64,000 bases of DNA, from assembly GCF_009600605.1 (NCBI RefSeq), contig NZ_VWNA01000001.1, positions 2,962,501 through 3,026,500 of the forward strand, given 5' to 3'. This DNA comes from Segnochrobactrum spirostomi (GTDB taxonomy: Bacteria > Pseudomonadota > Alphaproteobacteria > Rhizobiales > Segnochrobactraceae). The translations under genes were made by a program, and so were the position numbers. Below, in pieces: positions 34,424 through 52,270 of the stretch. The notes beneath the pieces are model-generated. The model did no database searches, was not told the origin of the DNA, and saw only the letters and a list, made by a program, of their open reading frames with translations. Every line of letters begins with the position of its first letter. The stretch's first letter is position 1.

Positions 34424-34702
34424 ATGGCGCCGACGCTCACCAACACCGATTACGTCCTCGCCGTCCCGTGCCGCCGCTACGAGGGCGAGTACCTCTATGT
34501 GGTCGAGAACACGAACGGGATGCGCCGGCTGGTGCGAGCCGAACCGGTCTGGGGCTCGGCCGACAAGCTGCGGCTCTGGCGGGACAACGCGCACTATCCC
34601 GATCAGGTGGTGCGGCGCGCCGTATTCGACCGGTTCGTGATCGGGCGGGTCATCGCAGACATCAAGACCCGCGACCCGGCCGCGATGGCAGCCCTCGTGT
34701 AG
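34424..34702 (+). CDS. Small hypothetical protein, possibly cut by the prophage end
   Basis: 92 residues, no recognised family. The sequence looks like a real protein (LTNTDYVLAVPCRRYEGEYL, RLWRDNAHYPDQVV). The ATG gives the first sensible start; the ribosome-binding site is weak (GCGGGCAGA). The stop codon TAG (34700-34702) falls inside the first of the tandem repeats that may mark the prophage terminus, so the natural C-terminus may have been lost to the insertion. Confidence 0.5.
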   Translation: MAPTLTNTDYVLAVPCRRYEGEYLYVVENTNGMRRLVRAEPVWGSADKLRLWRDNAHYPDQVVRRAVFDRFVIGRVIADIKTRDPAAMAALV

Positions 34703-34742
34703 CGCGCAAACTCGTTTGGCGTAGTGCGCAACGCATTTTGGC
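34699..34742 (+). repeat. Tandem 22-bp repeats, candidate transposase sites of prophage right end
   Basis: Two directly adjacent 22-bp units, each GTAG-Y-GCGCAA-N5-TTTGGC (34699-34720 and 34721-34742), identical at 16 of 22 positions. Mu transposase sites R1 and R2 are also adjacent 22-bp units just inside the right end, and Mu-like termini begin 5'-TG, which is present at 34698-34699. No left end is in the window to confirm the match. Confidence 0.45.
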
Positions 34743-34755
34743 GGCGTTTGCCGCC
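34740..34755. terminator. GGCGGC-GTTT-GCCGCC hairpin, copy 1
   Basis: A perfect 6-bp GC stem with a 4-base loop, next to the tandem repeats. Nearly identical hairpins occur at 55109-55124 and 63615-63630, each between prophage transcription modules. No T-tract, so the terminator role is tentative. Confidence 0.4.
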
Positions 34756-34894
34756 CCAGCTTCGGCACCCCCTCGAACGACTTTCGAAGCCGCTTCCACA
34801 CCCTGACACGAGACCCTCAGAGGCGGGGCTTGATCTCGCCGACCTCCTCCTGCGTTAATGAGAACATAACAGGAACGATCATCGGGGCGCAGCC

Positions 34895-35215
34895 ATGCTC
34901 ATGCTGGAGCGAATTCAGGGCGAGAGAGCCTATCAGGTGATGGCCGAGCGCGTTCACGTGGGCATCATCCGATATCATGAGGAATCTCCACCGGACACAC
35001 CGCGATGGAGCTGGAGCGCCGGCGGGTTCGGGGGCTGGTACGGCTCCGGCGCGAGGCAGGGTCGGGTCGAGACAATCGACGAGGCGATGCGGGCGTTCAG
35101 AGCCGTTTGGGAGCGATGGGTGCGAGACGCCGGTCTGATCGAACGGGCGTACCCGTTAGACTGGCCACCACAAAAAAGGGACCTTGATCCGACCGAAACC
35201 GCTGTCATCGAGTAG
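34895..35215 (+). CDS. Hypothetical prophage protein (106 aa)
   Basis: A 106-residue protein of unknown function. It has a conserved-looking aromatic/Gly patch (WSWSAGGFGGWYGSG) and an amphipathic helix (IDEAMRAFRAVWERWVRDAG). It is plus-strand, convergent with the methyltransferase gene and separated from it by a strong hairpin. The spacing from the candidate right end and the opposite orientation suggest an accessory (moron-type) gene. The 150 bases upstream are AT-richer (GTTAATGAGAACATAAC) and may hold its promoter. Confidence 0.6.
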   Translation: MLMLERIQGERAYQVMAERVHVGIIRYHEESPPDTPRWSWSAGGFGGWYGSGARQGRVETIDEAMRAFRAVWERWVRDAGLIERAYPLDWPPQKRDLDPTETAVIE

Positions 35216-35235
35216 CCCTTCGATTGTCAAAGAAC

Positions 35236-35257
35236 GCTCGCCGCGTGCGCGGCGAGC
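35236..35257. terminator. Bidirectional terminator hairpin
   Basis: A perfect 10-bp inverted repeat, GCTCGCCGCG / CGCGGCGAGC, with a 2-base centre, between the convergent hypothetical gene (stop 35215) and the methyltransferase gene (stop 35269). It would end both transcripts. Confidence 0.6.
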
Positions 35258-35268
35258 CGGGCCGAGCC

Positions 35269-35988
35269 CTATGCGTCAGGGCCGGCCGTGAGCCGGTCCA
35301 CAGCGATCCTGTAGATCTCCGGCACCACCTCGATCCCGAGATAGGCGAGGCCCCGTCGGGCGCATGCGAGCCCCACGGGCGCCGAGCCCATGAACGGATC
35401 CAGCACCGGGCCGTCCACGACCGCGAGCAACCCCTCCATCACCTCGATCGGCTTGCCCGCGATGTGCCGTTTGAACCGGGGAACGCCGGCCCGCAGCACG
35501 CCGGGCGCAACCGGCCCGGCGAGCGGACGCGGGCCATTGGTGCCCCACACCACATATTCCGCCTGCTGCCGGTAGCGCCCGAGCTGCGGGCGGCACCTCT
35601 CCGTCTTGTCCCAGACCGCGATTCCGCGCCAGATCCAGCCCGCCGCCTGCAGCGCGTCCGTCGTCACGGGAAGCTGACGCCAGTCCGAGAACACAGCCGC
35701 GATCCCGCCCGGTCTCACCGCGGCGCGCGCTCGGGAAAGCCAGAGGGTGGACCAGGCGTAGAAACTCCGCTGGTCCATCGTATCGCCCGCAAACTCGGGA
35801 TAGAGCCCGCGATCTGACGAGGTCTGATATTTGCGGCTGGGCACCGCAATCCGCTCGCCGGCCGTCGTACCGCCCGAGCAATAGGGCGGGTCGGCGATAA
35901 GCGCGTCGAACACGCCGCGCTCGAGCGTTGTCAATATCTCCAGTGCATCGCCCAGGTGTAGGGTGGCCGAACCGATCCGGTCGATCAT
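35269..35988 (-). CDS. Phage DNA methyltransferase (probably N6-adenine, beta class)
   Basis: A 239-residue methyltransferase with the catalytic motif ADPPYCSGG near residue 33 and the S-adenosylmethionine motif DPFMGSAP near residue 200. The order (catalytic motif first) is that of beta-class amino-methyltransferases; Ala replaces the usual second Gly in FMGSG. It lacks a cognate restriction gene. Its ATG overlaps the stop of the Com-like gene (ATGA), as in the com-mom pair of Mu, so it probably modifies phage DNA against host restriction and is expressed late. Confidence 0.85.
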   Translation of the reverse strand: MIDRIGSATLHLGDALEILTTLERGVFDALIADPPYCSGGTTAGERIAVPSRKYQTSSDRGLYPEFAGDTMDQRSFYAWSTLWLSRARAAVRPGGIAAVFSDWRQLPVTTDALQAAGWIWRGIAVWDKTERCRPQLGRYRQQAEYVVWGTNGPRPLAGPVAPGVLRAGVPRFKRHIAGKPIEVMEGLLAVVDGPVLDPFMGSAPVGLACARRGLAYLGIEVVPEIYRIAVDRLTAGPDA

Positions 35989-36155
35989 GCTCTGTCGTCA
36001 TCGTGGCGCTCCTCGCGCTCTCGTGCGGGCTCGATCGGCCTCAGGTGGTTCAGGGCGCCGCAGCGCCTGCATTTGATCTCGAGCGACGCGGCGATCGCAC
36101 CCGCCGCCGCTCGAAACATCAGCGCGCGGCACCGGCCGCACCTGAAATCGTCCAT
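35985..36155 (-). CDS. com: Com-like zinc-finger translational regulator (56 aa)
   Basis: A 56-residue protein, short enough to be overlooked. It has two CxxC knuckles (FRCGRCRAL near residues 6-9; IKCRRCGALN near 29-32) and a charged tail (EREERHDDD). In Mu, Com is such a zinc finger; it melts a stem in the com-mom mRNA to allow mom translation. Here the stop TGA overlaps the ATG of the DNA methyltransferase gene, the same layout, so the same control is inferred. The 153 bases upstream (36156-36308) show no gene. Confidence 0.8.
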   Translation of the reverse strand: MDDFRCGRCRALMFRAAAGAIAASLEIKCRRCGALNHLRPIEPAREREERHDDDRA

Positions 36156-36308
36156 TGTCTACGGCTCTCGAATCTGAGCCCCTGATCCGGCTGCGCGCAG
36201 CAGCGGCGGGGCGACGTTGAGCCGTCAGGTCGTCGTGCGGGTATCGGTTGGCGCCTCGCCCGCAGATCCGGGCGGCTTGCCGTCCGGACCCCCGTCGTCT
36301 CCCCGGCA

Positions 36309-37061
36309 TCAGACCGCTGGCGGCCATCCCTCGGTGATGTCGATCGCGTCGAGCGCCACGACGTCGGCCGCGGCCGCGACCTCATCCTTCAGCGCCCATG
36401 ACCGAGCGAGCACGGCCTGCCCCCACGCGACCATGGCGAGCAGCACCCGGTGCCCCTCGCCAAAGGTCACGGTCACGGTGACGTTCGCGGCGTCGCGAAA
36501 CGCAGCGCCCTCCTCGTCGCCATGGCCGGCCGCGACCATGGCGGCGTAACCGCTTGCCGCCGTGAGCCAATTCGTCCTGTCTTCGAGGCCGCGCGTCTGG
36601 AGCGTGTGCCCTGTCAACGGCCCGTCCGGCACGGTCCACCCGCCTGTCAGGATCGCGTCCCGCCGCGCCTCGACCGCGAGCCGCAGAGCCGCGCGGCGAG
36701 CTGCGAGGCCATCGGAGACGGTGATCGCCGCGTCCGCCGATCCGGACCACATCGGCTCGACGCGCGCTCCGGCGATCGAGGGCTCGGTGCAGTCCGTCGC
36801 AATCATGGTCGCCGGATCGATCGCGGCAATCGGCGTCTCGCCGGCGATCGAGCCGGATGCGAGGAGCCAGGCGCCAGCAATGTTCACCGCCGGCGTGACG
36901 ATCGCCCGCTCGCCGGTTTCCGGATCCGGCTCGCCCCACACGGCGCGCGCGGTGACGAGGTCGACCTCAAGGGCCGCGCCGCGTGCGCCGTCTTCGAGAC
37001 CGTCGAGTGCGGCGGCGCGCTCGGCGACCGTCGTGAATCGATAGAGGTGCATGAGCGTCAC
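36309..37061 (-). CDS. Tail-fibre-associated protein with DUF4376-like C-terminus
   Basis: About 250 residues. The C-terminal 110 (RRDAILTGGWTVPDGPLTGHTLQTRGLEDRTNW and on) resemble DUF4376, a domain found in phage proteins encoded directly after the tail fibre and thought to aid its assembly. The GTG start overlaps the tail-fibre stop (GTGA); an ATG three codons on is possible. It is the last gene of the tail module before com. Confidence 0.7.
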   Translation of the reverse strand: MTLMHLYRFTTVAERAAALDGLEDGARGAALEVDLVTARAVWGEPDPETGERAIVTPAVNIAGAWLLASGSIAGETPIAAIDPATMIATDCTEPSIAGARVEPMWSGSADAAITVSDGLAARRAALRLAVEARRDAILTGGWTVPDGPLTGHTLQTRGLEDRTNWLTAASGYAAMVAAGHGDEEGAAFRDAANVTVTVTFGEGHRVLLAMVAWGQAVLARSWALKDEVAAAADVVALDAIDITEGWPPAV

Positions 37062-39024
37062 CACGTGAGAGCCGAAAGGGCCTGGAGTTGGGCATCAGAT
37101 AGGGCCTGACGCGTGACGATCACACGCCGAGCATAAGCAGCCGCCAATGGAGCTACGATGAGCGCAGCCGGCGCGCTGCTCGCCGACGGCGCTGTTGCGA
37201 TGCCGGTCGGCGCCCGACCGTTGATGGCCCACCGCAGGCCGGAAGAACTCCACGTCGCCGCCATGCGTACCACTGTGCCGGTCGCAATCGTGACCTCTTC
37301 GGATCGCCCCATCTCGCCGGAGGCGCCTAGAGCGATCTGCTGTGCGTAGACCAGTCCGGACTGCCCGCGGATGCGGGCGAGATACCCCGGATTGTTCCAC
37401 GACCCGCCGCGCTGAACGCCCACGTCGAGCTGAGTGCTCGACGTCCCGGACGGCGCAAAAGGCATGCTGACCTCGACAAAAAATGCTCCGGTACGCGCCG
37501 AAAAGAGCGACGGCTCGAGTAGGGGCACCGAGAGGAGGTCCGCAGCTCGAGCGGCGGACGTGCCCGCAGTGAGAATGTCCGAGGTTGGCGACGCACGGGG
37601 CTCCAGTCCCGCGCCCCAAATCGCGATCGAATACCCGCTGCGGTCAAAGATCGGGACGATGGTGAGAGTGCCATCCGCAAGCGTCTTTGCGGCAACCCAC
37701 ACTCTCTTCCAAATGCCTTTGGTGAGCGTGAACGCCGCAGGGGTGAAGGCGGACGTCGTGGCGCCGCCCGCATCACGGAGATAAAGCGCCATGCTGTTTG
37801 TGGTGAGAGTGTCGCCGCCTGCCACGAGCTGGAGCCATGCCGGCATCGTGTAGGTGGTGCCGTTGGTGCCCGCGATGCCTCCCTGCGATACGAATGCGTT
37901 CGCGGAGGCATTCATGACGAGCACCTTGGCCGTGCTGCCATCTGGCGCCGTCACGGTCGTTCCCGAGATGGTAGCGTTCGCGCCGACCCCCCAGGGCGTC
38001 ACTGATATGTCGGTCGACCGAAGCGCCAAGTTGGTGCTGCCCGGCTCGATCAAGAGCCCCAATTTGTCACCGCTGTACTGATCGTACTCGATCCGCGGGA
38101 CATTGTTCGCGGCCGTCAGCATGGTTCCGTTCGGCCCGAAATAAGTCCCGCTCGACGCCCGGGTGAACGCACCGCCCATCCCCGTGGCCCACGCTGCCAG
38201 ATCACCGCTCGGAACACCGAGATCGCGCGCCCAATAGACGCCAGCCATAGGCGAAATGACGAGGTCCGGCTCGACACCGACGGCGCCGCCGACAGCGGTA
38301 GCCGCCACGATGCGGCGGATCTCCGATGCGAGTTGCACGACGGCGTTGGAGTTGTTCGACGTCGTCACCGTCGCCGTGAACGCGGCCACCTTCGCGTCAA
38401 CGCTGGCTTTGCTCGCCGCGGCCGCGTTGGCGCTCGCGGCCGCCGCCGCAACGGCCGCGTCGAGCGCGGGGGACGTCCCGAGCGCCAGATTGGCGGAGAG
38501 CGACACCGTCCCGTCAGACAGCGAGAACGACATGACGTCGCTATAGGTCGCCCCATTGTTCGTGGTCCGCTGGATCCGCAGGCGGTCGGTCCCGTACATG
38601 CCGATGCGCCACTCCTCACCGTCCCCGGTGCCGAGTGTGATTCCGGCGAGCGCGTCGGCTGTTTGCCGTCGGAGGACGATCTCCCGGCTATTCCCGGCTG
38701 TACGGAGCAACTTGCCAATCGAATCGATGTAGCCGACCAGCGTGGCGGCAAGAAAGCTCGCCGCGTCCGCGTCGGACGAGAAGAGCGGCTTGATCCGGAT
38801 TGGTGCCGCCGTGCTCGTCGGGCCGGCATATGGCCGGTCGAGCGTCAGTGTCGTGCTCGTCGCACCGGCCACGGCGTCGGCGATGATCTCGTAGGTCTGC
38901 CCCCCGGGTACGGCGCGATCACCTCGAAGCCGCCCCGGATCAGCAACGCCAATGTCGTCCCCGCCCACGAGAGCGTGGCCGACCCGTTATTCGCGACGAC
39001 GTTCTCGGGCGCGATCCATCTCAT
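37058..39024 (-). CDS. Tail fibre / receptor-binding protein, needs -1 frameshift
   Basis: The N-terminus begins MRWIAPENVVANNGSATLSW in one frame and runs about 41 residues to APYPGG. The rest (QTYEIIADAVAG... to LQALSALTW) is in the -1 frame. The switch is at a run of six G (plus-strand C 38900-38905). Together they make a fibre of about 655 residues, with an N-terminal attachment part, an Ala-rich coiled coil (about 200-250) and a C-terminal beta-rich half (AFTRASSGTYFGPNG, LLIEPGSTNLALRS) of the phage head-spike/fibre type that contacts the host. The ATG overlaps the upstream stop (ATGA). Confidence 0.75.
38899..38905 (-). other. G-GGG-GGC heptamer at tail fibre frame switch
   Basis: In the zero frame the codons are GGG GGC preceded by G, fitting X-XXY-YYZ. 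A -1 slip yields PGG-QTYEI, joining the two fibre halves exactly. Equally, one extra G in this run would give a continuous gene. Both readings produce the same protein. Confidence 0.5.
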
Positions 39025-39416
39025 GTGAGGCTCCAATCGATTGTGGCGGCGGCCTCGAGGGCGGCCGGATGGCGCGCGGCGCGGATGGCGTGGATCGCCG
39101 CCCGCCGCCGGCGCTCGATCTCGGCGCTGGCGGCGGCGCGGCGCGCCGCCTCGCGCTCGGCGGCGGCGAGGACGGCCCGGGCGACGTCGGCGAGCGTTCC
39201 GCCGGCGACGAGGTCCGCGGCGAGGTGGGGATAGGTATCCGCCGTCGGCGCCGGATCGGCGAGCGCCGCGGCGGCCTCGGTGGCCTTGCGCTCGTAGATC
39301 GGATCGATCGCCGACGCACATTCGCGCGCAAGCGCGGCGCCGGCCTCCGCATTGATCCGGTCCTCGGCGGCGGCGGCGAGCGGCGCCAGGTCGACGGTCG
39401 CGACGTACCGGGTCAC
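39021..39416 (-). CDS. Hypothetical phage tail protein (131 aa)
   Basis: 131 residues, mostly Ala/Arg/Glu-rich helix (LAAAAEDRINAEAGAALARE; AAEREAARRAAASAEIERRRRAAI), suggesting a coiled coil. The GTG start overlaps the previous stop (GTGA), and its own stop overlaps the tail-fibre ATG. Position between tip protein and fibre suggests a connector or chaperone; no family is recognised. Confidence 0.6.
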   Translation of the reverse strand: MTRYVATVDLAPLAAAAEDRINAEAGAALARECASAIDPIYERKATEAAAALADPAPTADTYPHLAADLVAGGTLADVARAVLAAAEREAARRAAASAEIERRRRAAIHAIRAARHPAALEAAATIDWSLT

Positions 39417-39883
39417 GGCGCGGCCTCCTCGGGCTCCGGCTCGGCGGGCGACGGAGGCGGAGGCGGCGGCTCGTGCGCGACGATCGTCACGTCGAGATCC
39501 TGGTACGGCCAGCACACGATCTCGACGCGATATGTGGCCGGCATCGTCGAGACGATTTCGAGCGTCCCGTCGTCCACCGCGACCGCCGCGCCGTCGACCG
39601 TGACGACGGCGCCGGCCGGGATGCCGGCGATGGTCGCGGCGTCCTCGCCGTCGGCGCGGATATCGGTGCGGTCCGGCCCGCGCAGCACCGGCCGCGCGAC
39701 GAGCGACCCGCCGGCGACGTCGACCATCACCGGTGCGTCTTGGTACATCGCGGGTGTCACGACAAAACCCTCGTCCGGCTCCGCATTCAGCGAGACGCCC
39801 CAGGGCGGCAGGGTGACCCAGCGCGTGATCTCTCCGATGCGCGCGCCTGTGGTCCGGTAATAACAGCCGGTGGTCGGGATCAT
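39413..39883 (-). CDS. Hypothetical phage tail protein (156 aa)
   Basis: 156 residues with a beta-rich body (TLPPWGVSLNAEPDEGFVV, IAGIPAGAVVTVDGAAV, ATYRVEIVCWPYQDLDVTIV) and a Pro/Glu C-terminal tail. It overlaps the tail-tip gene by four bases. Probably a small tail-tip or fibre-attachment component; not recognised. Confidence 0.6.
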   Translation of the reverse strand: MIPTTGCYYRTTGARIGEITRWVTLPPWGVSLNAEPDEGFVVTPAMYQDAPVMVDVAGGSLVARPVLRGPDRTDIRADGEDAATIAGIPAGAVVTVDGAAVAVDDGTLEIVSTMPATYRVEIVCWPYQDLDVTIVAHEPPPPPPSPAEPEPEEAAP

Positions 39884-42800
39884 CGTTTGAGCCTCAAGCA
39901 GAACAACGAGATGCTTCCGTTGTAATAACCTGTGCCGGGACGCAGTCTCGCAGATATCGTGAATGTCGTTCCGTATCGACCCAGCGGAAATACGTTGCTC
40001 GTTTGCGCGCCACCTGGACCAAAATAGCTATCGAATAGGTAGCCATCCACGTAGATATCGACGCTTCGTCCGTCGACAGGGATGGAGCCGAACGAGCCGA
40101 TCAGTTGCCATCCGATTAAGCACGGAAACCCCTCCGGGTTTGCGACGACGAGATTGAGCAATGTCGGCGTAGACGGGGTGACGTATACAGAATTATTCGC
40201 TGTGCTCGTCTCGATGACCGCCGAATTGTTGATGTTCGACGTCCCGACGACGAGATCTCCGATCTGGGCCGACGAGGCGATCAACTGCCCCGTCGTGATC
40301 ATGTTCGCTTCGATCGTCGGGATATACGCTTTCGCCAGCTTGCCGCTCGAGTCGAACAGCGCCGCCACGGTACCGGCCGACGACATGATGATCGTGCGCG
40401 CCGCCTCGAGCACGATCCGACCGCCGTTGTCCGTGTCGACCAGCAGGCCGGCCTGCTGCAGCGCCCCGCCGAGCTGCGCAAGCGCTCGGGCGAGCAGGCG
40501 AATGCGGCTCTGCGCACCCGTCGGGCCGGCGATGACGTCGAATTGCAGCCGCCCGGTCGCCGTCGCCTGATTGGCCGTCGCCTGCGCATTGGTGATCAGC
40601 GTCGCCTGCGCACCGTCCGCGCTCACCCGCGCGTTGCGCTCGTCCGTGATCGCCGTTTCAGCCGAGCCGAGCCGGCTCTCGGCCGTCGTGAGCCGCGTCG
40701 CGACCGACTCGTTCGTGCCAGCCTGCGCGACCGCGAGATCCGTGAGCGACGCGCTCGTTCCGGTCGACCCGACCTGCGCCTCGATCGTCGTCACGCGCTG
40801 GGCGATCGCCGTGTCGGCCGCCGCGAGGACGGTCTGTACGTCCACGATCGAGGCGTCGGTCTGGTCGAGATGCACCGACAGGCTCTCGACGATCTCGGCG
40901 ATCGCCGCGGCTTCCGCCCGCAGCGTGTCCGAAAGCCGGCTGCGCGCCGCGCGCTCGCCCGATTCCTGCACCGCCGTCGCCAGCAGCGACAGCGCGTCGC
41001 CGATCGCCGGCAGCCGCGTCGCATAGTCCCGCGCCCGCGCCTCGATCAGCGCCGTGAGCGAGGCCTCGGAACCGACCCGCGCGAGCTGCTCCCGGGTCGC
41101 CGCGGCATTGGTATCGCCGAGCGAGGCGGTGAGCCCGTCGAGCTGGTCGGCGAGCGCGCCGGTCTCGGTCGTCAGCGACTGCTGCGTCCGCAGGATGCCG
41201 GCGATCGACGTGCCGACCGAGGACTGCACATTCTCGATCTGAGAGGCGAGCGCCGCGTCGCCGGCGGCGAGCGCGGTCTGCACCTGCGCAATGCTCGAGG
41301 TCGAGCCGCCCTTGACCGCCTCGAGCCGCTGCTCGAGCGCGGCCGCGACGGCGCCGGTCGCGGCGTCGATCTCGGTGCGCAGGCTGTCGACCCGCCGGAC
41401 ACCCTCCTCGCGGGCGGCGGCGGCGGCCCGCTCGGCCGAGATCTGGTCGAGCACGCGGCCGAGCTGCGCCTCGACGATCGCCGCCGCATTCGCCTGCGCC
41501 GCCGCGACCTGGTTGCGCGCGTCGGCGACGGTCGCGTCGCCGAGCTGATCGACGGTGACGAGATAGGCCCGCACGTCCGCGCCGAGATCCTGGAGATCGA
41601 CGTCGCCGACGTCCGGTGCGATGACGTCCCGCCACAGCGACCAGGCGCCGTCGCCGATGCCGGAGCCCGCGAGCCGCATCTGCACTTGATAGGCCGTGTT
41701 GCGCGTCAACCCGCCGACGAGGATCACCGACGCCGCGACGCCGGCGCCGGTGATATCCGCCTGCTGGCGCATGACGACGCTGGGATCGCTGGCGCGCCGG
41801 ATCTGGAAATAGGCGATCTCCGCGTCGTCCGGATTGACCCACGTCGCGAGGATCGCCGGCGCTGTCCGCCCATTGTCGCCGTGCCACGGGAAGGGAGCGA
41901 CCGCGAAATCGACCGCGTCTCGAACGATCGCCGAAACGGGGATGAAAACGGCGTCCGACCGCGGCCGGATCATGCCGGCGGTCGGCGGATAATAATGGTT
42001 GGGGTCGACCTCCTGGATTGTCAGGGTGCTGTCGTAGTTCTGCTCTTCGTTCGACCCCTCGACCGAGAACAGCTTATAATCGAATCCTCTTTCCTCGCTG
42101 TACCACGCGATGACATGGCCGGCCCGGAGCCAGATCCACCGCGCCGCGAGGGACAGCGCAAGGCGACGCTGCCGGCGCGACTCGAGCGCGGCCTGACTCT
42201 GCAGCCGCTGCACCTGGTCGAGCTCGTCCACAAGCGTCGTGTCGAGTGGCTTGGAGCGACGGCCGCCGTCCTGCGCGATGAGGGTGGTGTTCTCGTAGAG
42301 GGGGGCGTCGCCTTTTTCGCCCGTCTCCCAGTTGAGATAAGTCGCGGCGACGGTGTTGACCCGCTCGTCGTCTTCGGCGAGCAGGTCGGTGGTCAGCTCG
42401 CGGCTGGCGAGCACGTCGGCGTCGGTGATGATCGCGACGGGCGTCGAAAGCATCGACGGCAGGATCGCGACGAACCGCCCACCGAGGTCTGCGAGGCGGC
42501 CGCCTGCGGTCGCGACGAGGGCCTCCATCGCGTCATAGGGCGGCGTATCGACGGTGATCTCGCCGCCCGCCGTGTATTGCGGGATCTGGCGGCCGTCGCC
42601 CGTGGTGATGATCCGGTCGCACTCGTTGGCCGCCGCGTAGAAATTGTCGAGCGGCCAAATGTCGGTGTCGGAATCCTCCAGACCATAATGGTGCAGCAGC
42701 GCGCCCGAGGACGCCGCGACCTTGATCCCGCGCGCGACGTTGTAGGCTTGCACGATCGGATTGCGGCTAATCCGATAGGTGCCGAGCGAACCCCAGCGCA

Positions 42801-43467
42801 TCGGCCCGTTTCCGCTGACGGTCGAATCGAACCGCGGGTCGTAGCAGGCCGCTCCCTGGATGCCCCACTTGAACGTGGGGATCTTGTTCATCCGCGTCTT
42901 CTGGTACATCGCCCAGGGGCGGACATAGGCCGTCGAGCGCCCGATCGCCGTCGTCGGCCACGCGTTGTGGCCGCTTTGCTGCGCGCCGTCGACCAGCACC
43001 GGATCAGCCGCGTTCTGCCAGCCGCTGTAGAAGCGGTACGATAGAAGATCACCGCTCATCAGCGAGACGTCGCCGTTTCCGGTCGTCCCGCGATAGGTGA
43101 TGATCTCGCCGTTGACCCAGACGCGCTCGATGACCTCTATCGGATGGTCCGCAAGGCGGATCGCCATCCCGAGCAGGACATTTTCGTGGTAGTTTTCGTT
43201 GCGGCCGTAATGCCCCCACGTGGCCGCGAAATCGAGCTGTCCGCCCACAACCGCCCGGCCGAGCACGAGCGTCTGCGGCCGATCCGGATCGAGCGAGAGC
43301 GTGGTCTCGATACCCCCGCCGCCGTTCGAAACCTTGGCCTTCGAAAACAGGCTCGAACTCGCCGCCGACAGCCCGGCGACGACGGCGGCGTCGATCACGC
43401 CGCCGACGAAGGTGCCGGCGCCGATCGCGCCGCCGATGACGGGGATGAGGCCGAGCAAAAAGCTCAT
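39880..43467 (-). CDS. Tail tip / host specificity protein (J/TipJ-like)
   Basis: 1195 residues. The N-terminal half carries hub-like domains (LILVLGRAVVGG-type start, VNGEIITYRGTTGNGDV, NPIVQAYNVARGI, YDAMEALVATAGGRLADLGGRFV), as in siphoviral central tip proteins. A fibronectin-like segment follows near 560-650. A long heptad-rich part (about 680-1020, with DATVADARNQVAAAQANAAA) resembles the DUF1983 stalk of J proteins. The ATG used gives a hydrophobic N-terminus (LLGLIPVIGGAIGAGTFVGG). It overlaps the upstream gene by ATGA. Confidence 0.85.
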   Translation of the reverse strand: MSFLLGLIPVIGGAIGAGTFVGGVIDAAVVAGLSAASSSLFSKAKVSNGGGGIETTLSLDPDRPQTLVLGRAVVGGQLDFAATWGHYGRNENYHENVLLGMAIRLADHPIEVIERVWVNGEIITYRGTTGNGDVSLMSGDLLSYRFYSGWQNAADPVLVDGAQQSGHNAWPTTAIGRSTAYVRPWAMYQKTRMNKIPTFKWGIQGAACYDPRFDSTVSGNGPMRWGSLGTYRISRNPIVQAYNVARGIKVAASSGALLHHYGLEDSDTDIWPLDNFYAAANECDRIITTGDGRQIPQYTAGGEITVDTPPYDAMEALVATAGGRLADLGGRFVAILPSMLSTPVAIITDADVLASRELTTDLLAEDDERVNTVAATYLNWETGEKGDAPLYENTTLIAQDGGRRSKPLDTTLVDELDQVQRLQSQAALESRRQRRLALSLAARWIWLRAGHVIAWYSEERGFDYKLFSVEGSNEEQNYDSTLTIQEVDPNHYYPPTAGMIRPRSDAVFIPVSAIVRDAVDFAVAPFPWHGDNGRTAPAILATWVNPDDAEIAYFQIRRASDPSVVMRQQADITGAGVAASVILVGGLTRNTAYQVQMRLAGSGIGDGAWSLWRDVIAPDVGDVDLQDLGADVRAYLVTVDQLGDATVADARNQVAAAQANAAAIVEAQLGRVLDQISAERAAAAAREEGVRRVDSLRTEIDAATGAVAAALEQRLEAVKGGSTSSIAQVQTALAAGDAALASQIENVQSSVGTSIAGILRTQQSLTTETGALADQLDGLTASLGDTNAAATREQLARVGSEASLTALIEARARDYATRLPAIGDALSLLATAVQESGERAARSRLSDTLRAEAAAIAEIVESLSVHLDQTDASIVDVQTVLAAADTAIAQRVTTIEAQVGSTGTSASLTDLAVAQAGTNESVATRLTTAESRLGSAETAITDERNARVSADGAQATLITNAQATANQATATGRLQFDVIAGPTGAQSRIRLLARALAQLGGALQQAGLLVDTDNGGRIVLEAARTIIMSSAGTVAALFDSSGKLAKAYIPTIEANMITTGQLIASSAQIGDLVVGTSNINNSAVIETSTANNSVYVTPSTPTLLNLVVANPEGFPCLIGWQLIGSFGSIPVDGRSVDIYVDGYLFDSYFGPGGAQTSNVFPLGRYGTTFTISARLRPGTGYYNGSISLFCLRLKR

Positions 43468-43913
43468 GCGGCCTCGCTCGCGCTCGAAGCCGCAGCCGCC
43501 GGCACGCCGACGCGGAAGGCCCTCATCGCCGCCGTGAGGTCGAGCCGGCCGAGCCCGTCGGGGCCGCGTGCGATGATCCACGCCCCGAACGACACGCCGA
43601 GCACGATCACGCCGTCGTCCCGCCGGATCGCCGTCCAGTCGCCGGCGTGCGCCATCGCGACCGGGATCTCGTCATAGATCGAGGCCGCGAGCCCGGCGAC
43701 GTCGCCCCAGCCGCGTTTGACGAGGATGCGCTGCGCGCCGCGCTCGGTGGTGTACGTGCCGCGGATGTCCGCGATCGGGTCGACACCGGTCAGCGCCAGC
43801 GCGCAATCCGCCGCCCAGGTCACGCAATCGGCGACGCCCCATGCGAACGGCGTTCGAAACTCGCGCAGGAAGCATTCGCCGAGGATCTTGCCGACATGCA
43901 CGAAGCCCGTCAT
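43464..43913 (-). CDS. NlpC/P60-like tail protein (DUF6950-like)
   Basis: 149 residues with WGVADCVTWAADC early on, the place of the catalytic Cys of NlpC/P60-like folds, and HAGDWTAIRRDDGVIVLG later with the likely His. Such proteins, encoded just before the tip protein in siphoviruses and gene transfer agents, are believed to open murein during DNA entry. Weak fold-level assignment; the exact family is uncertain. Confidence 0.7.
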   Translation of the reverse strand: MTGFVHVGKILGECFLREFRTPFAWGVADCVTWAADCALALTGVDPIADIRGTYTTERGAQRILVKRGWGDVAGLAASIYDEIPVAMAHAGDWTAIRRDDGVIVLGVSFGAWIIARGPDGLGRLDLTAAMRAFRVGVPAAAASSASEAA

Positions 43914-44509
43914 TTGACGCTCCGTGACGTGCCGAACGCAATGTCGATGCCTTTGAGGGCGCCGGTATATTGGGAATAGGTGTCGTTCGGGTCGCGTCGG
44001 CGCATGGCGGCGTCCGAGCGTCGCGCGGTCGACGCCATCGTGAGCTGATGCCCAGCGCCCTTCGCGGTGATGGTGATAGCGCCTTTTCCGCCCGCTTCCG
44101 GCTCGTCGATGCGGGCCGCCGTGATGCGGCCACGGAACCGGGTCACGAGCCCGTCGATGAGCTGGTTGGGATCGGTCTCGACGTCGAACACGCCGATGAG
44201 ATATTCGAGGCGCGCGTTGGTCATGTCCTGACCGCGTGCCATGAGCGACACGGCGCTCGAGATCTGCGACAAGGTGATCGTGAGGGTCGGGATCGACCCG
44301 TTCATCGTCGTAGTGCGACCGGAGACGCTGAACAGCGTTCCGCTCCCATAATAGGTCCGCCCCGAGATCGAGACGTTGTCGACGTCGTCCCAGAACCCGA
44401 TGGGGTCAGGGGTGCCGTCGAACTTTCGCGTCTCCGACCAGATGAACCGACGCATCTTCCATCCCGGGCGTGAAAGAGCGGCGATCTGAGCAGCGGTGAA
44501 ATCCCACAT
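43910..44509 (-). CDS. Tail hub-type protein (DUF2163-like position)
   Basis: 199 residues beginning MWDFTAAQIAALSRPGWKMR. A beta-rich body follows (GTLFSVSGRTTTMNGSIPTLTITLSQISSAV; LVTRFRGRITAARIDEPE). In gene order (distal tail, hub, peptidase, tip) it takes the place of the DUF2163 hub protein of gene transfer agents and RcapMu-type tails. The family assignment rests mainly on position. Confidence 0.6.
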   Translation of the reverse strand: MWDFTAAQIAALSRPGWKMRRFIWSETRKFDGTPDPIGFWDDVDNVSISGRTYYGSGTLFSVSGRTTTMNGSIPTLTITLSQISSAVSLMARGQDMTNARLEYLIGVFDVETDPNQLIDGLVTRFRGRITAARIDEPEAGGKGAITITAKGAGHQLTMASTARRSDAAMRRRDPNDTYSQYTGALKGIDIAFGTSRSVK

Positions 44510-44519
44510 GGGATGAACC

Positions 44520-45167
44520 TCACAAGGTGCTCTGCAGCGCCGAGAAGCCGATCCGAACGCGGCGGTTCGGTGCGGCGTCTTCCGTGCGGCTGTCTTTCTG
44601 GACGACGAAGCGCGCGGTCGGGACCGCGAAATAGACGGCGGCGCCGACGGTCCAGCCCGGGCGGATATCGGGAAACAGGCGCAGCGTGATGGCGCCACCG
44701 CCCGCATTCGCGGCGCGTGAGACGCGGTGCAGCGCCCGCTTGGCGCCGCCATCGCCGTAGTCCCAGCAGACATAATCACCGGGCGCCATCTGCAGGCCGT
44801 TCGGTACGCCGCCGATCGTCGCGAAGCGCGAACCGGTGACGCTCTGCAAGGTACCGGTGCCGGACCATCCCAACGCGGCGAAGCCGCTCGGATGCCGATG
44901 GGGATAGGGCCGCAACGCGTCGTAGCCCCAGAACCGCGCACCGACGGTGCACAGTTCGTCGAGCCATCCCCGCACTACGCCATGCTCCCAGGGGTCCAGA
45001 TAATCCGTCTGCCAGGTCCCGAGCCACAGCGCGGGACCGTAATCCGCGTCATAGGCGGCGCCGCCGCGCTCGATCGATGGCCCGTTCTGCGTCAAGAATT
45101 TGGGCTGCAGCAACATGCTCTCGAGGCGCAGCTCGACCGGGATCGTAAGAGGATCGGGGAAGCTCAT
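44520..45167 (-). CDS. Distal tail-type protein (215 aa)
   Basis: 215 residues with an aromatic-rich middle (YGPALWLGTWQTDYLDPWEHGVV; FWGYDALRPYPHRHPSGF) and a beta-rich second half. It follows the tape measure gene directly, overlapping by four bases, so it takes the distal-tail (DUF2460-like) position. No close family is recognised from sequence. Confidence 0.6.
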   Translation of the reverse strand: MSFPDPLTIPVELRLESMLLQPKFLTQNGPSIERGGAAYDADYGPALWLGTWQTDYLDPWEHGVVRGWLDELCTVGARFWGYDALRPYPHRHPSGFAALGWSGTGTLQSVTGSRFATIGGVPNGLQMAPGDYVCWDYGDGGAKRALHRVSRAANAGGGAITLRLFPDIRPGWTVGAAVYFAVPTARFVVQKDSRTEDAAPNRRVRIGFSALQSTL

Positions 45168-48100
45168 GTCGAACGCCCTCGCGTCGCTTTCCGCGCACGT
45201 TGCGTCACCACCGGCGCGTCCCGCATCGAGCGCTCATAGGTCCGCCGATTGCCTTCATCGACGATTTGACGGACCTCCTCTTTGCTCACGCCGGCGTTCG
45301 CGCCGACGGTGATGGACGTGACCGGCGCATAGGTGCCCCAGCCGCCGCCGGCGACGCGGTCGTTCGCCGCCGCCTGAAAGGCCGGGTTGGCGCCGACGGC
45401 AAAGGCCCGCGTCGCCCCGACGGGCCCGCCCTCGGCAAACCCGGTCCGGCCGGCATTGAGCGCGTCGAGGAACGGCAGGTGGCGAGACGCCACCGCCGCC
45501 CGCACGACGAACTCGCCGTCCGAGAGATACGCGGGGATCGAGTCGGACGTGCCGGAGCCCGCGCCGGTCACGCGGCCGCCGCCGGCGAGCTGGGTCGACG
45601 GCTTGCGGTGTGGTAAGGCGAAATCTCCGCCGCCGGTCGAACCCGCCTTCGCCCCGAACAGGTTCCCGAGGCCACCGAGCACGATGCCGAGGATGCCGCC
45701 GCCGCTGTCGCTGCTGCTCTCGCCGGATCCGGAGAGGCTCGACAGGATGGATTGCAGGCCGGAGCCGAACGCCTGCACGAACTGGCTCACGCCCTGTTCG
45801 AGGCCGCCGATGAGCTGGCCGAACGCGTCCTGGGCCTCGCCCGTGGTGGCCGTCGCAGACGTTTGCAGCGTGTCGCCGGCGGCGCCGATGCCGCGGGCGG
45901 AATCGAGCAGCGACGAGGCGCTGCCGCTGAGCCCGCGGCCGAGCGTGCCGAGCCCGCTGGAGGCGTCCCGGGCCGAGCGCGCCAGCGCGTCGACCGCCTC
46001 GGCCGCCGAGCCGCCGCCCTGCGCCGAGCGCAGCCCGAGCGGCTCGACATGCCACGCCTCGTTGTCGAGCGGAAACGACAGCCCGTAGCGCCCCGCATTG
46101 TCGTGCGCCCACGATCGCGCGTCCGCCGACGAATAGGAGAGATCGGCCGCGAGCCCGCGATTGTGGTTCGAGGATCCCGGCGGGGCGACCCATTTGCGCG
46201 CCGCGGACTCGGACCCGTACTTCGCCACCGCGTCGGCCCAGAGCTGCGCCTGGCGCTCCGTCGACCGAAACCCACTGGTGATGCCGATTTTGAGCCCGCT
46301 CGACGACGCATCCGAGATCATCGCCTCGAGGCGACGGCCGAACTCCGGATTGAGCCCGCCCGTGGTCGCCGTCCACGCCGCCGCCTGGGCGCCGGCGGCT
46401 GTCGTGCCCGTCGCCGCCGCTCCGGTGACGCTCCGCGCCACCGCGCCGGGCAGGCCGGCGCCGTTGTCGTTCGCCGCCCGGCTGTTGTCGTTCGCCCCGC
46501 GGCCGCCGCCGAAGAGATCGGCCATCGTCCCGAGATTGGTTCCGAACAACGCGTTTTTGATCGGATTGAGGATCGCGAGCTTCGCGAACGTCTGGATGAG
46601 ATCGGCGACGATCGAATTGATCGTCGTGCGCAGGGTCTCCCAGGAAAGCCCGTTCTGCGCGATCGACTGCGTCAGGTTGTCGAGCGCGCTCGCCCCGAAA
46701 TCGTGCAGGGTCGAATAGGCGTCCTGCTGCCGCTCGAGCGACACGGTGAGGTCCGCCTCGAGCGCCGCATTGGCGCGGTACCGCGCCGCCTCCGACGACG
46801 AGAGGTCGATGCCTTGGCGGCGCAGCTCCTGCTCGGCCTTGAGCGCCGCGAGCGCGCGCTCGCGCGCCGCCGTGCTGGCGCCGACGAGGCTCGTCTCGGC
46901 GCGGAGCTGCGCCAGGCGCTCGTCCTGCGAGGCGAGCATGCCGAGCGCGCGGCCGCGCCGCTCCTCGGCCGCGAGCTGGCCGTAGGCCGTCCGCAGGCCG
47001 TCGATCACCCGCCCCAGCTCGGCCTTCGCGGCGCCTTCGGCCTTGGCGTAGGCGATGAGCAGCGGCCGCAGCTCCTGCTCGACCTTCATCTGCTGCTCGG
47101 CGTCGGCGCGGCTCGTCGCGTCGGACGCGATCGCCGCATTGAGCGCCCGCTGCGCCGCGATGTCGGCCTGGAGCGAGGACGCGCGGGTCTGGTATGTCGC
47201 GAGCCCCTCGGCGAGCGCGCGCTGCCGCGCCGTCTCGATCTGGACGGAGGCCTGCGCCGTGGTGATCTCCTGACCCGTCAGCTCGATCGCCGTGCGCCGC
47301 GCGGTGAGCTCCGCCTGGGTGAGCGGGTCCTGGGCGGTCGCGAGCGCCATGTCGATGCGCGCAAGCGCCTGCGCCTTCTGGCTCGCATCCATCCAGGTCT
47401 GCAGCGCGCGCGTCTTCGCGTCGAGCGCGGCCGTCGCATCGGCGCGCTCGTCGCCGAGGAGGCCGCCGGCGAGACCGGCTCGAAGGGCATTCGAATCCGT
47501 TTCGAGCTGGCGCCGGCGTTGCGCATCCGAGGCGGCCGATGAACCCTGCGCGATCCCGGCAGCCCGTGACGTCGCCGTGTCGCGGGCGGCGGCGAGACGC
47601 GGATCGGCGCGCCCGATGCTGTCGATGAGCTTGTCGCGCAGGCCGGGGTTCGGAATGATCGTCCCGAACGCCTGGTCGAACGGGTTCTGCGCCTTGACGC
47701 CGGCGCCGACACGGGCGCCGAGGGCGCCGGCGATCGAGGATGCCGTGTCAGGCCCGCCGGCCGCCATCTGTCGCGCGGCGAGGATCGGACCGAGCACGTC
47801 CATCGCCGCGCGCGCCTTCTCGACGGTGCCGTCGATGGCGCGGCCCGTCGCGTCCCAGGCGTCGGATGCGCCGCGGGCCACATCGTCCCAGAAACGCGCG
47901 AGCGTGCCGAGCGCCTCGGCGGCGCCGGCGATCCGGGTCTGCAGCGTGGCGAGCAGAACGGTCCGCGCTTCTTCGCCCCGGTTCTGCTCGACGAGCTTTT
48001 GGACGTAGCGCGCCGTCGCACCGTCGATCAGGTGGAGCTGGCGATAGAGGATGTCGGCGCCGGCGGCCGGATCGGAGAAGATCTTCGCGAGTTGGTCGCG

Positions 48101-49288
48101 GGCCTCGTCGGTGGTCGTGCCGAGCGTCGCGCCGAAGTCGCGAGCGATCGCGATGAGCCCCTGGAAATTCCGCGTGCCGATGGTGCCGGTCCGCAGGAAC
48201 GCTGCCTCCATCGCCCGGGCCGAGACGACGGAGACCGATCCGGCCGCCGCGCCGGCGCGGGCCATCGCCTCGAGCTCGGCCGACGACGCACCGAGCGAGG
48301 CCCCGAGCCCGCGCGAGGCGATGTCCACCTCGCGCATCGAACCGACATAATCCGACCACGCCATGGCGCCGGCCACGACCGCCGCCGTCACGCCGCCGGC
48401 GGCCACCCGGGCGGGTGTGAGCACGGACACAAGGGCCTGGAACGTCCCTTTGATCCCGCCGAAGAGCGGGGCAATCTGCGAGCCCTGCTGGACGAGAACC
48501 GTCAGGGGGTTCTGGCCACTCGCCAGCGACACGACGACGTCGTTGAGCTGAAACGAGAGCTGCTGCGCCTGCCAGCCGGCGAGCTTGCCGGTCTTCGAAA
48601 ACTCCTGGAGCCCCTTGCCGGCGGCGCGGGCCGCGACGACGTGCTCGGCGAACGCCGCTTTGGTCCGCCCGATCGCGGCGGTGGCCTGCGCCGACGACAG
48701 CACGCCGTCCTTCTCGGCCTGACGGATCTCGGCGAGCTGCGCGCGGTAGTCGCGGGAGGCGGCATGGAGCGGCACATAACGGCCGCGCAGGGTCTCGGCG
48801 GCGGCCGCCTGCTGGGCGGTGGCGGCGGCGACGGCCCGGGCGCGGGCCTCCTCGTCGGCCGTCGCGGCGGCGAGCGCGCGCTGCCGCGCCTCTTCCTCGG
48901 CCGTGAGCTTGGCCGTCGCGGCGGCGGCCGCGGCACGCTCCCGCGCGATCCGCTCCTGCGCCGCCCGTGCGCGGTCGGTGGCGGCCGTCGTGGCCGTCGT
49001 GGCCGTCGCGACCTTCTGCTCGGCGGTCGCGCTCTGCTCGGCCGACGTGCGCACGGCGGCGTGCGCGGCGGCCTGCGCCGCGGCAGCTTTCGCCGCAGCC
49101 TCGGCCGCTCGGGTCGCCGCCTGGGTGGCCGCCGCGAACTGCCCGAGCGCGGCGCCGAGCGCGGCGGCCTGCGCAGAGGCCGCCTTGGCCTCGGCCGTCA
49201 GCGTGTCGACCGCGTGCGTGGTCGACGTCAGCCCTGCATTCGCCTGGGCCACGTCGGCCGTGACACGCATCGCCAGCTCGAGGGCCAT
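45164..49288 (-). CDS. Tail tape measure protein with M15 peptidase domain
   Basis: 1374 residues. The N-terminus is a long Ala/Gln/Glu coiled coil (about 1-330), followed by hydrophobic segments (GGVTAAVVAGAMAW), more coiled coil, and a Gly/Ser-rich C-terminal part. Near residues 985-1085 lies an embedded D-Ala-D-Ala carboxypeptidase-like (M15/VanY) domain with GFRSTERQAQLW, the zinc motif SNHNRGLAADL (His, Asp) and EAWHVEP (Glu, His). Length sets the tail; the peptidase would open murein on injection. GGAGG lies 6 bases before this ATG; a GTG one codon upstream is less likely. Confidence 0.9.
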   Translation of the reverse strand: MALELAMRVTADVAQANAGLTSTTHAVDTLTAEAKAASAQAAALGAALGQFAAATQAATRAAEAAAKAAAAQAAAHAAVRTSAEQSATAEQKVATATTATTAATDRARAAQERIARERAAAAAATAKLTAEEEARQRALAAATADEEARARAVAAATAQQAAAAETLRGRYVPLHAASRDYRAQLAEIRQAEKDGVLSSAQATAAIGRTKAAFAEHVVAARAAGKGLQEFSKTGKLAGWQAQQLSFQLNDVVVSLASGQNPLTVLVQQGSQIAPLFGGIKGTFQALVSVLTPARVAAGGVTAAVVAGAMAWSDYVGSMREVDIASRGLGASLGASSAELEAMARAGAAAGSVSVVSARAMEAAFLRTGTIGTRNFQGLIAIARDFGATLGTTTDEARDQLAKIFSDPAAGADILYRQLHLIDGATARYVQKLVEQNRGEEARTVLLATLQTRIAGAAEALGTLARFWDDVARGASDAWDATGRAIDGTVEKARAAMDVLGPILAARQMAAGGPDTASSIAGALGARVGAGVKAQNPFDQAFGTIIPNPGLRDKLIDSIGRADPRLAAARDTATSRAAGIAQGSSAASDAQRRRQLETDSNALRAGLAGGLLGDERADATAALDAKTRALQTWMDASQKAQALARIDMALATAQDPLTQAELTARRTAIELTGQEITTAQASVQIETARQRALAEGLATYQTRASSLQADIAAQRALNAAIASDATSRADAEQQMKVEQELRPLLIAYAKAEGAAKAELGRVIDGLRTAYGQLAAEERRGRALGMLASQDERLAQLRAETSLVGASTAARERALAALKAEQELRRQGIDLSSSEAARYRANAALEADLTVSLERQQDAYSTLHDFGASALDNLTQSIAQNGLSWETLRTTINSIVADLIQTFAKLAILNPIKNALFGTNLGTMADLFGGGRGANDNSRAANDNGAGLPGAVARSVTGAAATGTTAAGAQAAAWTATTGGLNPEFGRRLEAMISDASSSGLKIGITSGFRSTERQAQLWADAVAKYGSESAARKWVAPPGSSNHNRGLAADLSYSSADARSWAHDNAGRYGLSFPLDNEAWHVEPLGLRSAQGGGSAAEAVDALARSARDASSGLGTLGRGLSGSASSLLDSARGIGAAGDTLQTSATATTGEAQDAFGQLIGGLEQGVSQFVQAFGSGLQSILSSLSGSGESSSDSGGGILGIVLGGLGNLFGAKAGSTGGGDFALPHRKPSTQLAGGGRVTGAGSGTSDSIPAYLSDGEFVVRAAVASRHLPFLDALNAGRTGFAEGGPVGATRAFAVGANPAFQAAANDRVAGGGWGTYAPVTSITVGANAGVSKEEVRQIVDEGNRRTYERSMRDAPVVTQRARKATRGRST

Positions 49289-50012
49289 CACACACCTCCG
49301 TTGAGGACGCCGAGCGCGCCCTGCTCGAGCGCCTGCAGATCCTCGAAATTCACGCCCTCAGCCCCGAGCCGCCGCATCGCGACGTCGACCGCCGCATAAT
49401 CGAGGCCGATCCAGGTGACGCCGGAGTACCCGGCGATGGACCGCCATTGCGTTCCGAGACGCGTGAACAGCCTCACCGCGGGCCAGAGCTCGACCATCAC
49501 CTCGACCGTCTCCGGATCCGCGTCCGGAACCTCGATAGCGACACCGAGGCGCGCGAACTCAGCGCGCATCTCCTCGTCAGGCGGGGTGGGCTTGGACGGG
49601 TCGGTGCGACCGGTAACCGCGCGTGCCCAGGCCGCGCCGACCTCGATCAGTTTCCCCTGGGGCCGCCTTCGAGCGCCTCGGTCAGGCCGCGATAGGCCGC
49701 AGTGCGGAACCAGCTCCATTCGAGGGCGCGCGCGAAGGTGTCGCGCTCGAACGGAACCGGCTCCTTCTGCGCGTCCACGACCTCGCTCCAGTCGTGCACC
49801 ACGCGATAGAGCAGCTCGTGCTCGCGCTTCTCGCGTTCGTCGGGATCGAGGGCGGCAAGCTCGGCGGCGAGGCCCTGCGCCTCCGAGCGCGGAAGGGCCT
49901 CGAACCGCAGCTTGAAGGATTGCTTGTTGAATTTGCCGGGCCGCGCTTCGTCCGGCACGTCGGCCGAACACGGCCACCAGAACAGATAGCGATCGACGAG
50001 CGTGAACATCAT
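49288..50012 (-). CDS. Tail assembly chaperone GT, made by -1 frameshift
   Basis: The G frame (50012-49650) is joined by a -1 shift at GGGAAAC to a second frame of 120 residues running from LIEVGAAWARAVTG to QGALGVLNGGV. This gives a protein of about 241 residues, the classic gpG/gpGT arrangement of siphoviruses immediately upstream of the tape measure gene. The second frame has no start of its own and ends by overlapping the tape measure ATG. The long form should bind both tape measure and tail tube protein during assembly. Confidence 0.8.
49647..50012 (-). CDS. Tail assembly chaperone G (short form)
   Basis: 121 residues (MMFTLVDRYLFWWPCSADVP... to EALEGGPRGN), the un-shifted product, ending at TGA one codon after the slippery site. 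Typical size and position of gpG-like chaperones between the tail tube and tape measure genes. Either of two consecutive ATG codons may be used. Confidence 0.8.
   Translation of the reverse strand: MMFTLVDRYLFWWPCSADVPDEARPGKFNKQSFKLRFEALPRSEAQGLAAELAALDPDEREKREHELLYRVVHDWSEVVDAQKEPVPFERDTFARALEWSWFRTAAYRGLTEALEGGPRGN
49650..49656 (-). promoter_or_regulatory. Programmed -1 frameshift site G-GGA-AAC
   Basis: In the G frame the codons read AGG GGA AAC TGA, so the heptamer G-GGA-AAC fits X-XXY-YYZ exactly and is followed at once by the stop. Lambda uses GGGAAAG at the same step. A -1 slip continues as CTG ATC GAG (LIE). Confidence 0.85.
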
Positions 50013-50060
50013 GACCTCGCGGGCGACGTGAGAGAGGGCGCGGCGGCGGCCGCGCGGGCG

Positions 50061-50990: not shown

Positions 50991-50991
50991 G

Positions 50992-51201
50992 TCACTTTCC
51001 TTTCCTGGCCGACGTGGTCACGTCTTCGGTCGGTTCGGCCGCGGGTGTGGGTTCGGCCGGCGCGGGCTCGGCCGGCGAGTCACTGGCGATCGGCGCTGCG
51101 ATCGGCGCCGGCGCCGGCGTCTCGCCGTCCTCGGCGAGCGGCGTGAGGCCACCGGTCTTCGGGTCGTAGAGCCAGCGTCCGCCGCTGGTGGCGATCGTCA
51201 T
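50992..51201 (-). CDS. Small hypothetical tail-module protein (69 aa)
   Basis: 69 residues: a short N-terminal motif (SGGRWLYDPKTGGLTPL) then a Pro/Ala/Glu-rich disordered tail ending SARKGK. It overlaps the upstream gene by four bases and is one base from the tail tube gene. Such small proteins with a WxYDPxTG-like motif recur beside tail tube genes; function unknown. Confidence 0.6.
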   Translation of the reverse strand: MTIATSGGRWLYDPKTGGLTPLAEDGETPAPAPIAAPIASDSPAEPAPAEPTPAAEPTEDVTTSARKGK

Positions 51202-52033: not shown

Positions 52034-52036
52034 CGA

Positions 52037-52270
52037 TCACTCCGTGCGCGGTTGCGGCGCGATCGGCCGGGCCGCCTGCTGGCCCCAGAACACGGCCTCC
52101 TGCAGCCGTCGCTTGGCGAGCGTCGCCTCGGCCTTGCCCGGCAGAGCGTCGAGCAGCTCCCACAGCGCCTGCGCGGCGTAGTGGACGCCGAAGACCTCGA
52201 AGGCCGGGCTATCGCCCGCCGCCGGCGGGCCGGCCCTGACCGCTTCGTCGAAGGGCGTCGTCATTTCCAC
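52037..52270 (-). CDS. Small hypothetical head-module protein (77 aa)
   Basis: 77 residues without a recognised family; FEVFGVHYAAQALWELLDALPGKAEATLAKRRLQEAVFWGQQA suggests two helices. It lies 3 bases upstream of the DUF1320 gene. Starts at MEM or MTT are both possible. Tandem repeats lie just before the start. Confidence 0.6.
   Translation of the reverse strand: MEMTTPFDEAVRAGPPAAGDSPAFEVFGVHYAAQALWELLDALPGKAEATLAKRRLQEAVFWGQQAARPIAPQPRTE

What the first reader, a model, noticed from the sequence alone, without database searches (positions are those of the whole stretch)
34693..34755. Candidate right end of the Mu-like prophage with tandem 22-bp sites
Two adjacent 22-bp units (GTAG-Y-GCGCAA...TTTGGC) follow a TG, as Mu R1 and R2 follow the terminal TG. 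The stop of the preceding small gene lies within the first unit, as if the prophage had cut that gene. The flanking bases CCTCG (34693-34697) would be the 5-bp target duplication.
Basis: inference. Interest (0 to 1): 0.55.

Follow-up and report, generated by a model that had tools for sequence, protein, structure and literature searches.

The report
Right end of a Mu-like prophage
The marked spot is the true right end of a 43.7-kb virus that jumped into the bacterium's chromosome like phage Mu, and mapping both ends exposed a strictly 10-base-spaced motif at the opposite end, shared with phage Mu, that may be where such viruses start packing their DNA.

Summary
Confirmed. The two 22-bp units at 34699-34742 are the tandem right-end sites (R1, R2) of a Mu-like prophage running from 34698 to 78360 in window coordinates (43,663 bp; the window stops at 64000). 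The left end was found as predicted: an inverted unit, terminal CA, then CCTCG. Joining the flanks lengthens the cut gene from 92 to 105 aa in frame. In related prophages, 6 of 6 testable in a first set and 10 of 12 in a second have such ends with exact 5-bp duplications. The R1-R2 pattern occurs in 27 of 397 genomes of the order; the reversed control gave none.

New on the way: just inside the left end a motif (YGRRW) repeats at exactly 10-bp steps. It is at 22 of 26 left ends collected without using it and 1 of 80 right ends, and in Mu, B3, PM105, HS6 and MuM16-1. It is absent from five phages with a different small-terminase protein, two of them with transposases of our family; one phage with our type, martha, also lacks it. 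I propose it is the packaging start read by Gp27-type small terminases. That is inference; nothing was tested at the bench.

The parts
34693..34697 (.). 5-bp target duplication CCTCG, copy at the right end (other copy at 78361-78365, beyond the window)
34698..34720 (+). right terminus (TG at 34698-34699) and transposase site R1 (34699-34720), reading inward
34721..34742 (+). transposase site R2, direct repeat at +22 bp
   Evidence: same spacing in 5 of 6 first-set relatives, 23 bp in the sixth
34424..34702 (+). host-side gene remnant (C-terminal half of a CI-like repressor, PHROG 6201) cut by the insertion; its stop now lies in R1
34698..64000 (-). part of the Mu-like prophage inside the window; it continues to 78360 (contig 2997198-3040860)
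35269..35988 (-). N6/N4 DNA methylase gene just inside the right end
57236..58738 (-). Mu-type portal protein gene
58740..60389 (-). large terminase gene
   Evidence: PHROG 2, E 2e-34; Pfam match below its cut-off
60389..61624 (-). small terminase ORF; Mu Gp27-type domain in residues 225-403

Best explanation
34698 is the right terminus of a Mu-like (DDE-transposase) prophage inserted by 5-bp staggered transposition into the last codons of a small repressor-like gene. R1 and R2 (34699-34742) are adjacent, same-direction recognition sites for the phage's MuA-like transposase. The left end at 78360 carries inverted copies: L1 at the terminus and two weaker sites about 162 and 198 bp inside. Transposase bound at L1 and R1/R2 would pair the ends and join them to a target. 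Shown: sequence, termini, duplication, conservation. Inferred: binding, pairing and transposition. The left end also carries a 10-bp-phased array (positions 29-73 from the terminus) that I take, less firmly, to be the packaging start site (see the section on the most novel reading).
For: Left end matching the prediction, with CCTCG on both sides. MuA-like transposase (PHROG 310, rve, Mu-transpos_C), MuB-like AAA protein, HTH repressor near the left end in opposite orientation, Mu-type portal, Gp27 small terminase. Exact 5-bp duplications in 6 of 6 testable first-set relatives and 10 of 12 second-set ones (8, where the left end was ranked by motif before the duplication was checked; 2). R1-R2 pattern in 27 of 397 genomes of the order, own included, reversed control none, and in 56 stretches of IMG/VR. 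Phages RS1 and RC1 (transposase 44% identical over 53% of the query) share TGTAGCGCG... / ...TTACA ends with different flanking DNA.
Against: L1 matches R1 or R2 at only 14 of 22 positions; the inner left sites score 15 (position 162) and 14 (184 and 198) of 22 against the family consensus. Two second-set relatives fail: G285 (left-end motifs present, no duplication) and G008 (no left end in the stretch fetched). The first-set pairs were ranked with the duplication required. The RS1 and RC1 records show no 5-bp duplication at their ends, as might be expected of assemblies from mixed virion DNA. No empty site was found. No binding or transposition data.
Confidence: 0.96

Rival explanations
1. 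The prophage is bounded elsewhere, for instance at the tRNA-Ser gene 165 bp beyond the proposed left end, and the tandem units are an internal or unrelated repeat.
For: A tRNA-Ser(GGA) lies at L002:16525-16614, and phages often integrate at tRNAs.
Against: The only recombinase identified is a MuA-like transposase (not every ORF was scanned). Exact duplication at TG...CA ends here and in 16 of 18 tested relatives.
Confidence: 0.02
2. For the 10-bp array: it is a built-in bendable spacer between L1 and L2 that helps assemble the transposase complex, a role that host HU plays in Mu (recalled).
For: It lies between L1 and the inner left sites and not at right ends; helical phasing suits bending.
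Against: Phages RR1-B and KS10 have transposases of the same PHROG 310 family yet no array; absence goes with the small-terminase type instead.
Confidence: 0.3
3. For the 10-bp array: it binds a phage regulator such as the repressor and is an operator.
For: The repressor is the nearest identified regulator gene to the left end here.
Against: It hugs the terminus (first motif 28-50 bp in) and is shared by phages of different host groups.
Confidence: 0.08

Closest known systems
Escherichia phage Mu (also D108, SfMu)
   Same: Transposase and oppositely oriented repressor at the left end (MuB recalled), termini beginning TG; D108's record marks two transposase sites in tandem at the right end, 21 bp apart. 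Mu, SfMu and D108 carry the same 10-bp array at positions 32-66 of the left end.
   Different: The sites here read YGCGCAA...TTTGGC and lack the CGAAA core of the Mu consensus quoted in the D108 record.
Rhodobacter phage RcapMu
   Same: Its record marks attL1 and adjacent attR1/attR2 as repeats potentially associated with transposase recognition; right end begins TGTAGCGCG.
   Different: No 10-bp array at either end; DUF1804 protein beside the large terminase instead of Gp27 type.
Rhodovulum phage RS1 / Rhodobacter phage RC1
   Same: Closest transposase among the named phages (44% identity over 53% of the query), similar gene order, TGTAGCGCG / TGTAACCCG ends, Gp27-type small terminase in RS1.
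   Different: In RS1 the TGTAAC-type end with the array is on the tail-gene side, not the repressor side.
Ancylobacter lacus contig NZ_JAHBGE010000049.1
   Same: Most similar transposase found (66% identity, residues 10-503).
   Different: Only 1.9 kb precede the match in the fetched locus, less than the 4.8 kb between transposase and left end here; its ends were not examined.

Membership tests
Mu-like transposable phages | MuA-like DDE transposase and MuB-like ATPase | tested here: met
   PHROG 310 E 1.4e-90; rve and Mu-transpos_C; PHROG 296 E 6e-54; AAA_22
Mu-like transposable phages | TG...CA termini with a 5-bp target duplication | tested here: met
   relatives
Mu-like transposable phages | Several transposase sites at both ends, tandem at the right | tested here: met
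   By sequence only: R1, R2, L1 and weaker inner left sites
Mu-like transposable phages | Transposase binds these sites | not testable with these tools
   needs footprinting
Mu-like transposable phages | Repressor near the left end, opposite to early genes; Mu-type head and packaging genes | tested here: met
Mu-like transposable phages | Replicative transposition; host DNA at both virion ends | not testable with these tools
   needs induction and virion DNA
Genus Muvirus site type | Sites with the Mu consensus (CGAAA core) | tested here: not met
   Consensus as quoted in the D108 record; own R1, R2 and L1 lack CGAAA
pac site read by Gp27-type small terminase (the array) | Array at one end only, with a Gp27-type small terminase in the same phage | tested here: met
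   Own. Elsewhere 7 of 8 other phages with a checked Gp27-type protein have it at an end; martha does not. The second end was not scored for PM105 and HS6.
pac site read by Gp27-type small terminase (the array) | Required for packaging; bound by the small terminase | not testable with these tools
   Mu's packaging site was mapped in Groenen and van de Putte 1985, seen here only as a reference title

The most novel reading that the evidence does not exclude
Transposable phages whose small terminase is of the Mu Gp27 type share a packaging start signal: four or five YGRRW motifs spaced exactly one 10-bp helical turn apart, starting about 30-50 bp inside one terminus. A ring of small-terminase subunits would contact one motif per turn on one face of the DNA. 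The signal would survive wholesale change of the transposase sites around it, be missing where the small terminase is a DUF1804 protein, and sit at the other, tail-gene side in phage RS1, which would then package from that side.
Probability: 0.45. Interest if true: 0.65.

Novelty: new member of a known kind. Interest (0 to 1): 0.5.

Why it matters
The exact boundaries of a divergent Mu-like family are now fixed, so such prophages and their deletion remnants can be delimited by a short DNA pattern. The phased left-end array, common to Mu and distant relatives, gives a concrete, mutable candidate for how Gp27-type small terminases choose where to start packaging. If the array is already known as Mu's pac sequence in literature not held here, its conservation, exact period and link to small-terminase type would still be useful.

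Tried and rejected
Left ends near 75783 or 70091, suggested by 15/22 matches, were rejected: no CA and CCTCG there. Empty site: the tRNA-Ser stretch is 99% alike in one same-family genome, but in the loci compared the flanks around it do not match. Left pattern in 327 genomes, nearly all of other orders of the class: no match; own L1 does not match that pattern either, so it is narrow. Strict array test in Vibrio phage martha: none within 900 and 700 bp of the record's ends; allowing 9-11 bp steps gave one hit at chance level. Away from the ends, four-unit scores of 18 also occur by chance: 2 in the own 82 kb, 2 in RS1, 4 in RR1-B, 4 in martha, 0 in KS10. One right end of 80 passed the test (L160) and is unexplained. 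Literature: the array was not found described in the listings, nor in the passages read (five papers, passages only, none read whole). The 1985 packaging paper did not appear in those listings; I did not look it up by id. KS10, used as an array-less phage, is reported to lack TG...CA termini and flanking repeats (passages of PMC2628397), so it is a distant comparison.

Full report
The observation. Two 22-bp units stand at 34699-34720 and 34721-34742, after a TG at 34698-34699 and after CCTCG at 34693-34697. The gapped pattern has two matches in the window and none in 100 dinucleotide shuffles. The small ORF that precedes them ends at 34702 inside the first unit.

The left end. The window is contig 2962501-3026500 of a 5.4-Mb genome, and 18 kb beyond it were fetched (L002; window coordinate = L002 + 62000). 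They hold a MuA-like transposase, a MuB-like ATPase, a transcriptional regulator and an opposite-facing HTH repressor. Searching for inverted units led to ...GCGTCACA|CCTCG: the last phage base is 78360, the prophage is 43,663 bp, and CCTCG flanks both ends. This combination occurs once in 18 kb; 1000 first-order Markov simulations gave 5 in all. Reading inward, the left end has L1 at the terminus and weaker sites at 162 and 198 (15 and 14 of 22 against a family consensus; a further, overlapping 14 at 184). Joined at CCTCG, the cut gene reads on in frame, 105 aa instead of 92. It resembles the C-terminal half of CI-like repressors (PHROG 6201, E 6e-6). Of three relatives found two could be aligned again and end within about a dozen residues of it, so the cut removed only a tail.

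Relatives. The transposase search gave matches at E <= 0.001 in 48 of 199 genomes, 20 places with E below 1e-80, own included. For nine I asked for left and right stretches. Two right stretches were off the contig (G071, G061) and one contig stopped short (G050, where no convincing pair appeared). In the other 6 of 6 the top-ranked ends were TGTAAC[GC]CGCAA (left) and TGTAGCGCGCAA (right) with an exact 5-bp duplication (the duplication was required in the ranking). The second right unit lies 22 bp on in five and 23 bp on in the sixth. The tandem right pattern then matched 31 places in 27 of 397 genomes of the order, own included, with no match for the reversed control, and 56 stretches of IMG/VR. 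Of the 25 places not yet studied I asked for 20 left stretches; 13 came back and 12 were tested, one being left out because its right end was not among the loci. Ranked by motif alone, 8 had an exact duplication; two more did once their left ends were found (G007, G242). G285 has left-end motifs but no duplication, and for G008 no left end was found. RS1 and RC1 align over 39.5 kb that begins TGTAGCGCGAC and ends GTCGGGTTACA with different flanks; neither record shows a duplication there.

The phased array. In the aligned left ends YGGG recurs at about 30, 40, 50 and 60 bp from the terminus. For a test I collected left ends by the L1 pattern only: 27 found, 26 after removing near-copies; some are prophages already in the duplication set. 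With the motif fixed beforehand, 13 of 26 had YGGGW pairs exactly 10 bp apart (26 pairs), none at 5-9 or 11-15 bp; of the right ends, 80 of 88 after removing near-copies, none had a pair at 10 bp. A looser four-unit score (YGRRW, >=18 of 20), set after looking at the family and at Mu, is met at 10-bp period by 12 of 14 duplication-proven left ends and 0 of 14 right ends (own and RS1 scored apart), by 22 of 26 pattern-found left ends and 1 of 80 right ends, and at no other period from 7 to 14. In the own 82 kb, scores of 19 or more occur only at the left end; two chance scores of 18 lie elsewhere.

The same array is in Mu (positions 32, 42, 52, 62), SfMu, D108, B3, MuM16-1 and HS6 (shuffle p 0.0005-0.009) and in PM105. 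The terminus of HS6 was placed by eye in a circular record. These phages had mostly been seen by eye before scoring, so the p-values are descriptive. RS1 lacks the array on the repressor side (p 0.61) but has it on the tail side (p 0.0035; also first noticed by eye). It is absent from both ends of RcapMu and of the D3112 record (that record's right end does not begin TG and may not be the phage end), from the terminal 700 bp of RR1-B and KS10, and from the left end of MP22.

What it tracks. Small terminases of Mu, B3, HS6, MuM16-1, RS1 and own are Gp27 type (PF11985 / PHROG 426), as is martha's; SfMu (100%) and PM105 (28%) match Mu Gp27 by tblastn. D108's was not checked. Of these nine, eight have the array at an end; martha, whose left terminus I could not place, has none. 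D3112, RcapMu, RR1-B, KS10 and MP22 (tblastn) carry the DUF1804 / PHROG 756 protein instead, and none of the five has the array at the ends examined. The transposases of RR1-B, KS10, martha, RS1 and own are all PHROG 310, so array loss does not follow the transposase family. With profiles built from six Gp27-type and two DUF1804-type proteins, a Gp27-type ORF was found in 13 of 14 duplication-proven relatives and a DUF1804-type in none (18-kb stretches; G107 gave neither). The phages are related and few, so this association is suggestive, not proof.

Mechanism. Shown: exact ends, duplication, conserved tandem right sites, a left-only phased array. Inferred from Mu biology: transposase pairs L1 with R1-R2 and makes 5-bp staggered joints. 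Inferred here: the array is the packaging start. Mu packages from its left end, taking 50-150 bp of host DNA (passage in PMC5977238). I recall that its pac site maps about 32-54 bp from the left end, within the span of the array; the 1985 paper was seen only as a reference title (PMC5418689). The main rival is a bendable L1-L2 spacer for the transposase complex.

Verdict. The finding is correct and is a new member of a known kind. The array is the more interesting result and could be tested in laboratory Mu.

Noticed in passing
L002:16288-16332 (window coordinates 78288-78332, minus strand): 10-bp-phased YGRRW array at the prophage's left end, shared with Mu and others; candidate packaging start site.
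   Followed up: yes
L240 (G007:C55:185675-196990) and L241 (G242:C5:281455-290959): Elements of only 11.3 and 9.5 kb with intact ends and exact duplications; inside are transposase N-terminal pieces together with tail or head genes, so they look like internal deletion remnants.
   Followed up: partly
L075 (RS1), both ends: End types look swapped relative to the genes: TGTAAC plus array on the tail side, TGTAGC on the repressor side.
   Followed up: partly
L002:9003-9308: Small ORF right after the transposase gene resembles that protein's own C-terminal part (47% and 72% identity in two pieces; Mu-transpos_C just under cut-off): a partial duplication.
   Followed up: partly
window ~31850-32230 and L002 ~16890-17070: Intergenic repeats that match on both strands, present in dozens of copies in this genome and also in a same-family genome.
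   Followed up: no
G253:C37:190156-190264: Two right-end patterns 75 bp apart in the same direction in one genome.
   Followed up: no
G285:C2:177411 and 180623: Two left-end motifs about 3 kb apart, neither flanked by the duplication of the right end at 148796.
   Followed up: no
window 33077-34273: ParA-like gene beside the cut repressor remnant, outside the prophage; no match in the two same-family genomes.
   Followed up: no
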